Part shown: piece by piece, positions 37,182 to 39,584 of the stretch
Numbering within the stretch: the first letter of the stretch is position 1
Layout: each line of letters starts with the position of its first letter
Assembly (NCBI RefSeq): GCF_001484685.1
Contig: NZ_CP012200.1
Coordinates: 1,606,321-1,670,320, forward strand
Reading direction: 5' to 3'
From: Thermococcus sp. 2319x1
GTDB lineage: Archaea > Methanobacteriota_B > Thermococci > Thermococcales > Thermococcaceae
DNA length: 64,000 nucleotides
The notes under the pieces: generated by a model
Told to the model about the DNA's origin: nothing
The model's database searches: none
Seen by the model: only the letters and a program-made list of their open reading frames with translations
Made by a program: the position numbers and the translations under genes

Positions 37182-37313
37182 ATGAAAGCGCTTTCTATCG
37201 TGGTGGTAATCTTGGCAGTTCTCATGGCTATGTATACCCCTTCTCAGGTAAAACTCAAGGAATTCCAGTTCTCGGAAGTCCCAAATGTTAAACGCCTTTT
37301 TGAAAAGTTATGA
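37182..37313 (+). CDS. Small exported or membrane peptide, 43 residues
   Basis: ATG 37182 opens MKALSIVVVILAVLMAMYT, a signal or anchor helix, followed by a short amphipathic, basic tail ending VKRLFEKL. A TATA-like CTTTTAAATC at 37155-37164 lies about 22 bp upstream, suggesting a leaderless or very short-leader message. Its 3' end overlaps the convergent membrane-protein pseudogene by 6 bp. Not recognised. Confidence 0.45.
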   Translation: MKALSIVVVILAVLMAMYTPSQVKLKEFQFSEVPNVKRLFEKL

Positions 37314-37633
37314 AATTCTCCAGATCATTTCAATGTACATACCAATTAGGCCAAGTTCAAATGCCACTAAAAATAACGTTGATACATTGAGGCCTTTGAT
37401 GCTTTCAACTGCAAAATAAGCCAAGAGAATGCTCAAAAGAATTCCAGCCGTGCTTACAGGCGGGTTTTTCTTTAAAATCGCAGGCAATAACATCAAAACT
37501 AGCATAAAGTACAATATTACGAAGGGATACTTAGCATATCCAGTTACTAATGCCACTCCACCCAAAAGAACTCCAAAATGGAAGCAAAAATTATGGAAAT
37601 ATCAGACTTTCTCAATACGATCTCCCTCCTCAT
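37308..37633 (-). pseudogene. Small membrane protein with single-base frameshift
   Basis: The downstream frame (FGVLLGGVALVTGYAKYP onward, three helices) has no proper start. In the neighbouring frame, ATG 37633 begins MRREIVLRKSDISIIFASI and would join it if one T were added to the TTTT run near 37588, giving a smooth first helix. Without the change it stops after 28 codons. It is the last member of the Cys-rich peptide operon, 49 bp after the preceding gene. Confidence 0.5.
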
Positions 37634-37682: not shown

Positions 37683-37880
37683 TTATTTGAGGACTTTCAC
37701 TATGGTGCTGTTTTTCAAGGCTCTCCAAACAACACTTACTGCTCCAGCTGTGAGTGCTACAATTCCGTAGTATCTAAGCAGGAGCTTGTTCCATTCCACA
37801 TAAATTGATAACAAAATTAGGGATATGCCGACCAAAAGAATAAAGTATGAGAGGTAATTTAAAAACTTCTCCTTCTCCAT
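37683..37880 (-). CDS. Small two-helix membrane protein
   Basis: 65 residues with two predicted helices (about 10-30 and 36-55) and charged ends. ATG 37880 has GGTGGTGAG directly upstream. It sits 12 bp after the stop of the interrupted Cys-rich peptide frame. An immunity or export role is possible given the context, but there is no sequence evidence. Confidence 0.6.
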   Translation of the reverse strand: MEKEKFLNYLSYFILLVGISLILLSIYVEWNKLLLRYYGIVALTAGAVSVVWRALKNSTIVKVLK

Positions 37881-37892
37881 CTCACCACCACC

Positions 37893-38105
37893 TTAAGGTC
37901 CAGGAATTAAGATTCTTTGTCCACATTTCTGTTCCCATTCCTCACAACATGCCTATGGGAAAATTCCAGCAGCAAGAAGACAGGCTAAACAACTGGCTAC
38001 ATTTCCACTAAGACACGTACCACATGCCCATACATCTCCTCTAGCACACGCTCCATAGCATCCCTCTAACCCCAAGCCTTTGGTGAAAGCCCACGTTGAA
38101 TACAT
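37893..38105 (-). pseudogene. Cys-rich peptide gene interrupted by TAG
   Basis: ATG 38105 follows GAGGTG by 6 bases; this site overlaps the stop of the gene before it, so it is coupled. The first 50 codons contain Cys at 16, 20, 28, 31, 39 and 42 (CGTCLSGNVASCLACLL), then a TAG at 37955-37953. The same frame continues for 19 more codons with three further Cys (ACCEEWEQKC) to TAA at 37893. The pattern aligns with residues 190-227 of the 18-Cys protein at 38886-39584 (CGPACLLGPVACLSCSL, DCLEEGSIC). It is either a recent nonsense mutation or a truncated 50-residue peptide. Confidence 0.6.
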
Positions 38106-38115
38106 TTTCATCACC

Positions 38116-38454
38116 TCAACCATTAGTTTTAGATGGCCGATTTACAAAAACAAAATATATTATTAGCGATATAGGTATCCAAAAAGCTATACTCATTGCA
38201 AAAACTAGCAAATCTTTATCGGTCAGTGTCCCTGCAAGATATTTTATCATTGCCATTAAAAGGTACCAGATAACTATAGCAAATGGAGCAAGTGACTTGA
38301 ATTTAACTGCAAAAGCATAGGAAATAACTCCCACTACGATAAACAAGAAAATTTCCGAAAATGGTTCATTCCTCAGGAAAATTAGAGTTAAGGTAACATA
38401 CAAAAAGAGCGGAATAAATGCTAACCCTCTCTCCTCTACACCCGTTTTCTTCAT
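38116..38454 (-). CDS. Four-helix membrane protein of Cys-rich peptide operon
   Basis: 112 residues with four predicted helices (about 12-28, 34-50, 54-72, 84-104) and both ends probably inside. ATG 38454 follows GGAGG by 6 bases. It starts 18 bp after the gene at 38473 and its stop overlaps the ribosome site of the Cys-rich peptide. No family recognised. Size and placement suit an immunity or helper protein, but that is inference. Confidence 0.65.
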   Translation of the reverse strand: MKKTGVEERGLAFIPLFLYVTLTLIFLRNEPFSEIFLFIVVGVISYAFAVKFKSLAPFAIVIWYLLMAMIKYLAGTLTDKDLLVFAMSIAFWIPISLIIYFVFVNRPSKTNG

Positions 38455-38472: not shown

Positions 38473-38874
38473 CTAATTCTGATTACCTGCTTTATGGCGA
38501 TAGTAATCGACGACGGTTTCATATATTGCGACGACTCCTAATAATACCACCCACAGGGCCCCCAATATGACATCTTGCAAATCAAGTCCGTACAAAAAGT
38601 CTATTGTCCCAAGAGTAGCAATGTAACTTATGATGCCTGCAATTAACATCCTTACTGAATTATGAAAGCTTGTTTTTCTCTCCAGAATCACGTAAATGAT
38701 GATAAACATGCCCAACAGTACTGCAGAAAGTGGTGCGAAAAATTTCAAGAAGCTCACGAATTCTGCAACACTTCTTCCGTCAATCATAAACATTACGAAA
38801 AGACATGCAGTAATAAGGAAAAAGAAAAACAACATTCTGAGGATCAAAGTCTTTGACGTTATGTTAGCAGACAT
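38473..38874 (-). CDS. Four-helix membrane protein of Cys-rich peptide operon
   Basis: 133 residues with four predicted helices (about 12-32, 42-63, 73-93, 100-121) and a short basic tail (YYRHKAGNQN). ATG 38874 has GGAGGG 6 bases upstream, overlapping the TAG of the Cys-rich precursor gene. It is similar in size and topology to the next gene, and the two may form a pair. Not recognised. Confidence 0.65.
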   Translation of the reverse strand: MSANITSKTLILRMLFFFFLITACLFVMFMIDGRSVAEFVSFLKFFAPLSAVLLGMFIIIYVILERKTSFHNSVRMLIAGIISYIATLGTIDFLYGLDLQDVILGALWVVLLGVVAIYETVVDYYRHKAGNQN

Positions 38875-38885
38875 TCAAATCCCTC

Positions 38886-39584
38886 CTATGGAGCTACTGA
38901 TTGACATATTGAACCTTCCTCTAGGCAATCCCTACAAATATCGTAGTAACACCATGGACACAATCCAAGAGAACACGAAAGGCAAGCAACCGGTCCAAGG
39001 AGACAAGCTGGACCACAAAGATCACAACACCAAAATACACAATCTGGATCTGGTGAGCTCTGTTCACAGCAAATTTCATAGCATGCTTCGAGAATACCAC
39101 AGTCTGCATCACTGGAGCATTCGTGAGGACAGGAGCTGAGAATAGTCACTTGTCCGTTGGTACTTAATGCTTGAGTTTTTACAAGAGTTTCATTTACGCC
39201 AAACAGGTAGCTTCTTGTCTTGATTCCTTGTACTGGTTTTGAGAATTCATAATAACCTATTACGTGCTTGCCGTCTTTTAATGGGATTCCCATGGCAAGC
39301 ATTTCAATCCTCTCGCCGTTATAATCTACAATGTGCCTTACTATTCTGACGCTCTTATAGTCAACTTCCCAAGGCTTTGCCAAACTCCTAAGGTCCTTGC
39401 TAACGAGGATTTTGTTAAAAACACGCACTGAAGACCAGTTCTCCGGAGCTTTTTCCACAGGCTTGACTTCTCTAAATGGATTCACACAACCTTTAACTTC
39501 TGGGGGTTTGGGCTGGCTTACTGCGTAAGCTGCGTACGCTCCAACCAACAACAAAACCACAAGCAAGCTTAACTTCTTCCTCAT
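38886..39584 (-). CDS. Exported precursor with 18-cysteine C-terminal domain
   Basis: 232 residues. A signal peptide (about 1-22) is followed by a beta-type domain with one Cys (about 30-148), then a compact domain (152-227) with 18 Cys, mostly as CC, CxxC and CxxxC, separated by small hydrophobic residues (GPACLLGPVACLSCSLGLCP). The layout of exported N-domain plus Cys-rich hydrophobic C-domain recalls the halocin C8 precursor, where the C-part is a peptide antibiotic and the N-part confers immunity. I see no sequence identity strong enough to claim homology. A metal- or cluster-binding surface protein is the alternative. It leads an operon of small membrane proteins and a second Cys-rich peptide. 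Confidence 0.7.
   Translation of the reverse strand: MRKKLSLLVVLLLVGAYAAYAVSQPKPPEVKGCVNPFREVKPVEKAPENWSSVRVFNKILVSKDLRSLAKPWEVDYKSVRIVRHIVDYNGERIEMLAMGIPLKDGKHVIGYYEFSKPVQGIKTRSYLFGVNETLVKTQALSTNGQVTILSSCPHECSSDADCGILEACYEICCEQSSPDPDCVFWCCDLCGPACLLGPVACLSCSLGLCPWCYYDICRDCLEEGSICQSVAP

What the first reader, a model, noticed from the sequence alone, without database searches (positions are those of the whole stretch)
37893..38105. Second Cys-rich peptide interrupted by an in-frame TAG
The frame keeps the family pattern on both sides of the stop (six Cys before, three after), fills exactly the space between its coupled start and the ribosome site of the next gene, and aligns with the tail of the 18-Cys precursor. 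This suggests a very recent nonsense change, a read error, or a functional 50-residue form. Selenocysteine is excluded (TGA) and pyrrolysine is not expected here.
Basis: seen in the sequence. Interest (0 to 1): 0.55.

Follow-up and report, generated by a model that had tools for sequence, protein, structure and literature searches.

The report
Dead tail of a peptide-toxin-like gene
The stop codon sits in the leftover end of a broken gene for a cysteine-rich secreted peptide in a heat-loving archaeon, one of many such wrecks, and a small membrane-protein gene beside it has stayed intact, much like immunity genes that outlive lost bacteriocins.

Summary
The in-frame TAG is real (37955-37953, minus strand), with six Cys codons before it and three after. 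It is a recent nonsense change: the two close homologs found in 94 genomes of the family both carry TGG (Trp) there, and the codons after the stop are as constrained as those before it (window versus G079: dN/dS 0.11 and 0.21). But this is not a short peptide gene that caught a stop. Intact homologs are 268-301-residue precursors with a hydrophobic N-terminus, a leader domain and a Cys-rich end; here about the first 220 residues are missing, and the frame's first ~22 codons come from spacer DNA that has stops in a relative. The G079 copy is broken differently. Recoding is not supported: no PylS over cut-off, no CTA-anticodon tRNA seen, TAG ends 13 of 61 window ORFs. Broken copies are common (16 beside 33 intact in 48 stretches). 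A small membrane-protein gene directly follows 29 of 29 intact tails looked at and 9 of 10 broken or relic ones, and core and partner co-vary. Best reading: a decayed archaeocin-like precursor whose partner, probably the immunity gene, has been kept. The stop itself is ordinary; the family around it is the interesting part.

The parts
37892..38123 (-). Second Cys-rich frame: leaderless remnant of a B-type precursor, with a premature TAG and a final TAA
   Evidence: translation; homologs
37953..37955 (-). In-frame TAG; TGG (Trp) in both close homologs
37892..38024 (-). B-type C-terminal tail, homologous to G079 and to the intact 268-aa precursor of G091
38010..38054 (-). 45 nt, 84% identical to the Cys-rich core of the A-type precursor of G078 (44 nt, 84%, in G075)
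38056..38123 (-). 5' part of the frame: spacer downstream of the 112-aa gene; the G089 counterpart has a one-base indel and two TAG stops in the corresponding frame
37683..37880 (-). 65-aa membrane protein, intact; proposed partner (immunity) gene of the dead precursor; relatives follow the tail in G079 and G091
38116..38454 (-). 112-aa membrane protein gene (no Pfam or NCBIfam match)
38473..38874 (-). 133-aa membrane protein gene, directly behind the intact A-type precursor
38886..39584 (-). Intact A-type precursor, 232 aa: hydrophobic N-terminus, conserved leader domain, 18-Cys core
37182..37313 (+). 43-codon remnant of a 555-aa M1-peptidase gene that is intact in G075 and G078
37308..37620 (-). 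Homolog of the 103-aa membrane protein of G078 (upper limit approximate); one T missing from a T run shifts the frame near the N-terminus

Best explanation
The frame is a pseudogene: the C-terminal remnant of a second (B-type) precursor of a secreted Cys-rich, archaeocin-like peptide. Shown: about the first 220 of 268 residues of the homolog are missing, the 5' part of the frame is spacer DNA, a Trp codon has become TAG, the tail was under protein-level constraint until recently, and a homologous copy in the same gene order in G079 is broken by different lesions. Shown for the family: the Cys-rich cores looked at are followed at once by a small membrane-protein gene, core and partner sequences co-vary after allowing for the leader, and nearly all relic tails still have such a gene behind them. 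Inferred: the core is an antagonistic peptide, the membrane protein its cognate immunity factor, cassettes (core plus partner) turn over at these loci, and the partner is kept after the toxin dies because it still protects against relatives that make it. If made at all, the 50-56-residue product would lack an export signal and probably do nothing.
For: Both close homologs have TGG at the stop position; intact B-type precursors in G091 (268 aa) and elsewhere in the window's own genome and in G078 (301 aa); G079 remnant with leader piece KRNPMLNERTKNADLSRMILKVSLLRM in another frame; window versus G079 dN/dS 0.21 before and 0.11 after the stop; 5' part shared with a G089 spacer with stops; at the orthologous site G075 and G078 have no second tail; no strongly hydrophobic N-terminus (0.53, against 2.19-2.95 in 29 precursors); TAG is an ordinary stop in 13 of 61 ORFs; PylS over cut-off in 0 of 94 genomes; no CTA anticodon among 47 tRNA matches; 16 broken or relic copies beside 33 intact in 48 stretches (by my reading, two of the 16 by eye); partner gene behind 26 of 26 intact A-type tails and the broken G087, 3 of 3 intact B-type tails and, G087 included, 9 of 10 broken or relic tails, against 248 of 960 random positions; core-partner partial correlation 0.70 (0 of 5000 permutations), 0.69 with near-identical loci removed (0 of 10000); 65-aa partner versus G079 dN/dS 0.23.
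Against: Only two close homologs of the tail were found, one in a thin MAG contig (title coverage 1.3). The window frame has a good ribosome site and overlaps the gene before it, as a real gene would. The dN/dS values rest on 19-59 codons and, for G079, on two copies that are both dead now, so they speak of the past. The 65-aa partner against G091 gives dN/dS 0.60, weak constraint. One broken tail (G029) has no ORF of 55 or more residues within 130 nt; the nearest, 71 aa, starts at 180 nt. Of seven relic tails only two match one intact locus in both tail and partner; in G089 the tail is nearest to G079 while the partner is nearest to the window's 133-aa protein, so pairing is not strict. Partner presence could be decay not yet begun. 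No killing or immunity has been shown for any member, and no family library recognised the precursors scanned.
Confidence: 0.85

Rival explanations
1. Sequencing or assembly error: the real codon is Trp and the frame reads through 76 codons.
For: One-base difference from the homologs; a neighbouring gene shows a one-base homopolymer difference that is also error-like.
Against: Single-contig genome, 99.83% complete. Even without the stop the frame lacks the leader and starts in spacer DNA, so the gene would still be a remnant.
Confidence: 0.1
2. A functional short, leaderless Cys-rich peptide of 50-56 residues, made from the coupled start and ending at TAG.
For: Good ribosome site and overlap with the preceding gene; six Cys kept; low dN/dS before the stop.
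Against: G079 has a TGA just before the shared stretch and no ATG before it in frame; the first ~22 codons are not conserved as coding sequence; the constraint extends beyond the TAG just as strongly, which a peptide ending there would not need; the 29 precursors with a complete, scored N-terminus begin with a hydrophobic segment, this frame does not. Intact was defined here by leader plus core, so the absence of leaderless intact members is not independent evidence.
Confidence: 0.04
3. TAG is read through or recoded (as Trp or pyrrolysine) and the 76-residue product is made.
For: Conservation behind the stop; a second family member, in G087, also carries TAG at a conserved Trp position.
Against: PylS over cut-off in 0 of 94 genomes (one of 14 control genomes passes; 75 of 94 show only weak matches); no tRNA with anticodon CTA, and the one tRNA-Trp seen reads CCA; TAG ends 13 of 61 window ORFs, 8 of 43 of those of 600 nt or more; TGG to TAG is a single transition.
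Confidence: 0.01

Closest known systems
Orphan immunity genes left by displaced effectors (T6SS arrays of Vibrio, PMC5361080; passages seen, parts of the abstract among them)
   Same: Dead or displaced toxin gene, partner gene kept behind it, several partner genes in a row, mosaic locus
   Different: Here a peptide precursor with an apparent signal segment and small membrane proteins in archaea; killing and immunity untested; the relic is a C-terminal tail
Halocin C8 / TIGR04449 halocin_C8_dom
   Same: Archaeal precursor with an N-terminal domain and a Cys-rich C-terminal peptide (halocin layout recalled)
   Different: The profile finds nothing at E <= 1 in the window's genome; of 61 genomes searched only G073 passes the cut-off
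VARTIG modules of Thermococcales (PMC8416519; passages seen, parts of the abstract among them)
   Same: Hypervariable proteins, distinct membrane proteins downstream, gene shuffling
   Different: Centre protein is a large Ig-domain protein, not a 230-300-aa Cys-rich precursor

Membership tests
Pseudogene of the B-type Cys-rich precursor family (defined here) | C-terminal tail homologous to an intact precursor | tested here: met
   G091 intact 268-aa precursor, 60% identity over 43 aa
Pseudogene of the B-type Cys-rich precursor family (defined here) | Disabling lesions not shared by intact relatives | tested here: met
   TAG for TGG; leader missing
Halocin C8 family (TIGR04449) | Match to the halocin_C8_dom profile over cut-off | tested here: not met
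   No match in G000 at E <= 1; no NCBIfam family over cut-off for the window precursor, G079 A or G091 B
Bacteriocin/archaeocin with cognate immunity | Hydrophobic N-terminal segment and variable Cys-rich core in the precursor | tested here: met
   29 precursors at 2.19-2.95; G082, cut by its contig end, -1.32; four gave no anchor and were not scored; core alignment. A hydropathy score, no signal-peptide program
Bacteriocin/archaeocin with cognate immunity | Adjacent small membrane protein inherited with its core | tested here: met
   27 of 27 loci given, partial r 0.70, 0 of 5000; 24 loci 0.69, 0 of 10000. Exceptions among broken tails: G029 without close partner, G089 mismatched
Bacteriocin/archaeocin with cognate immunity | Killing of relatives and protection by the partner | not testable with these tools
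   needs experiments
Recoded amber codon (pyrrolysine or suppressor tRNA) | PylS, or a tRNA with anticodon CTA | tested here: not met

The most novel reading that the evidence does not exclude
Thermococcaceae carry an undescribed family of secreted, hypervariable Cys-rich peptide toxins with cognate membrane immunity proteins; core-plus-partner cassettes are swapped under a constant leader, and dead precursors leave orphan immunity genes, the TAG relic being one recent case.
Probability: 0.4. Interest if true: 0.62.

Novelty: new member of a known kind. Interest (0 to 1): 0.32.

Why it matters
The stop codon itself is an ordinary nonsense change in a dying gene. It matters as a marker: it shows very recent loss of a precursor whose small membrane partner is still intact. 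Seen across the family, this gives a testable picture of toxin loss with immunity kept in hyperthermophilic archaea, where few antagonistic peptides are known (recalled), and a list of core-partner pairs to test.

Tried and rejected
Weak matches of the read-through frame in the own genome and in G075, G081, G078 and G079 (E 2.8e-5 to 0.24) were dropped as non-homologous: the own-genome one lies antisense to a conserved 411-aa gene (L017; its Nre-like nature is recalled), and the other four have closely similar wording. Ten further weak rows (E 0.015 to 2.6) were also dropped: five contain stops, and the G043 row lies inside that genome's A-type precursor; the rest were not examined closely.

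Halocin C8 membership was tested by profile and not met. Pfam, NCBIfam, PADLOC and PDB sequence searches gave nothing over cut-off or convincing for the precursors and small membrane proteins scanned. Plasmids held no relative of G091 B or of the window A precursor at E <= 0.01; viral contigs none of the tail or the A precursor. Genome contigs gave one locus, the G091 record; that scan may leave out the window's own and near genomes and did not return G079. No structure prediction was run.

Counts are my reading of its table over 48 stretches, chosen because searches had matches there (four weak rows were not fetched). G047x and G057 run to contig ends and were not counted as broken, G082 is cut by its contig end and not counted as intact; the window relic and the G089 tail were added by eye because the profiles did not report them. 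Searches were given 27 and 24 loci for which I had a tail motif; four intact A-type loci (G005, G047, G059, G092) were not given, nor were G006 and G061 among the broken ones. Membrane segments were called by a simple hydropathy rule.

Full report
What was claimed and what is there. It is there. The frame opens with ATG at 38123, which overlaps the stop of the preceding 112-aa gene; an inner ATG at 38105 has a good ribosome site. TAG is at 37955-37953 and the final TAA at 37894-37892. Six Cys codons come before the stop and three after it.

Close relatives. The window lies in a 1.96-Mb single-contig genome; that its family is the Thermococcaceae is inferred from gene content and from the record title of G091, a Thermococcus MAG. 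In 94 genomes of the family 15, own included, had some match to the read-through frame at E <= 10, but apart from the window itself only G079 (E 3.1e-18) and G091 (E 2.0e-12) are close homologs. A scan of genome contigs returned one locus, the same contig as G091; it may leave out genomes near the window's, and did not return G079. G091 has an intact precursor of 268 residues with a hydrophobic N-terminus, an N-terminal domain and a Cys-rich end, of which the window frame matches only the last 43 residues or so. Further B-type precursors, 301 codons and intact, lie elsewhere in the window's own genome (G000:C1:753187-753999) and in G078. At the stop position both close homologs have TGG, Trp.

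The stop is recent. Over 23 codons before the stop window and G079 differ by 10 synonymous and 9 non-synonymous changes (dN/dS 0.21); over the 19 codons after it by 7 and 6 (dN/dS 0.11). Against G091 the values are 0.20 and 0.13. The A-type leader of window and G079 gives 0.15. So the tail was under normal protein constraint on both sides of the stop for most of the time since these copies split. The numbers of codons are small.

The gene is dead for another reason too. The DNA from 38480 to 38056, which includes the first ~22 codons of the frame, is 79.6% identical over 426 alignment columns to a stretch of G089 that contains the 112-aa gene's homolog and the spacer after it; in G089 that spacer has a one-base indel and two TAG stops in the corresponding frame. 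A 45-nt stretch (38054-38010) is 84% identical to the core of the A-type precursor in G078, and only from 38024 on does the B-type tail begin, so the frame is a patchwork. The best hydropathy in its first 30 residues is 0.53, against 2.19-2.95 in the 29 precursors scored; a thirtieth, G082, whose N-terminus is cut by the contig end, scored -1.32, and four gave no anchor. In G079 the tail stands in the same gene order (A-type precursor, membrane gene, tail, small membrane gene) but beside other chromosomal neighbours than in the window. It still has a piece of leader (KRNPMLNERTKNADLSRMILKVSLLRM, 48% identical to G091) in another frame, then a break and a TGA. The lesions of the two genomes are different, which suggests parallel loss. 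At the site orthologous to the window's, G075 and G078 have an A-type precursor and a 114-aa membrane gene but no second tail.

No recoding found. PylS gave no match over the curated cut-off in 94 genomes; 75 show weak matches only, and one of 14 control genomes passes. Of the 46 tRNA matches over cut-off and one weak match in the own genome, ARAGORN named 45, none with anticodon CTA; the other two, read by eye, are intron-bearing and carry CAT and CCA. TAG ends 13 of 61 non-overlapping window ORFs of 100 or more codons, and 8 of 43 of those of 600 nt or more.

The family. The window's intact 18-Cys precursor (A type) has matches in 40 of 94 genomes, own included, at E <= 0.01, some of them fragments or weak. 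They share a leader domain and differ strongly in the Cys-rich core. In 48 stretches I count 30 intact A-type and 3 intact B-type precursors and 16 broken or relic copies (two of the 16 by eye). Among the broken ones G087 has a TAG at a conserved Trp of the leader and G067 a TGA in the core. Several assemblies are drafts, so some breaks may be errors.

The partner genes. For 27 A-type loci with a usable tail motif (26 intact and G087), 27 have an ORF of at least 55 residues with a hydrophobic segment starting between 45 nt before and 130 nt after the tail's stop; so do the three intact B-type tails. The same rule is met by 248 of 960 random positions in these stretches. The similarity of cores predicts the similarity of partners after allowing for the leader (partial r 0.70, none of 5000 permutations reached it); with near-identical loci removed (24 loci) it is 0.69, none of 10000. 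Seven of seven relic tails, the window's included, have such a gene directly behind them; with the broken genes G087 and G067, which have one, and G029, which does not (nearest ORF of that size 180 nt away), it is 9 of 10. Two relics (G050, G071x) match one intact locus in both tail and partner; in G089 tail and partner point to different loci, and G042 and G053 have no clear counterpart. The window's 65-aa gene has dN/dS 0.23 against G079 and 0.60 against G091.

Mechanism. Shown: loss of leader, nonsense change, past constraint, partner present, core-partner co-variation. Inferred: the cores are peptide toxins of archaeocin type, the membrane proteins their immunity factors, and turnover leaves immunity genes behind. 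This is how T6SS arrays in Vibrio were explained (PMC5361080, passages). VARTIG modules in Thermococcales show a similar style of variation around a different protein (PMC8416519, passages). Halocin C8 is the nearest known archaeal peptide by layout (recalled), but its profile does not match. A 2019 survey of archaeal antimicrobial peptides that may have touched on this family is recalled and not held, so I do not claim as fact that the family is undescribed; my searches for such a description were made, and one search was for orphan immunity genes.

The neighbourhood decays too. The M1-peptidase gene that lies beside the locus in G075 and G078 (555 aa; PF01433 over cut-off in the G075 protein) is reduced in the window to its first 43 codons, and the 103-aa membrane gene next to it has lost one T of a run and its frame.

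Verdict.

Noticed in passing
window 37182-37313: 43-codon remnant of an M1-peptidase gene that is intact (555 aa) beside the same locus in G075 and G078
   Followed up: yes
window 37308-37620: Homolog of a 103-aa membrane protein with one T missing from a T run; error or decay
   Followed up: partly
G000:C1:369167-369265 (L126): A further relic in the same genome: the start of an A-type leader, 85% identical to the window precursor over 33 residues, broken after it
   Followed up: partly
G087:C1:1083502-1084185 (L092): A-type precursor with TAG in place of a conserved leader Trp, the same kind of change as in the window
   Followed up: partly
G073:C2:17222-17476 (L086) and G073:C2:225695-225922: The only two halocin C8 profile matches over cut-off among the 61 genomes searched
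   Followed up: no
L082 (G089), about 4375-4334 on the minus strand: Orphan tail CCEEEGTYCDVNQ directly before the 133-aa membrane gene; about 10 nt upstream a GC-rich stretch resembles the end of an IS200/IS605-type element (recalled likeness, not tested)
   Followed up: no
L026/L127 (G079) and L082 (G089) against window, L080 (G075), L081 (G078): The precursor locus has different chromosomal neighbours: an Elp3-like gene and an M1-peptidase side in window, G075 and G078, an adenosylhomocysteinase-like gene in G079 and G089 (gene names other than M1 recalled from sequence)
   Followed up: no
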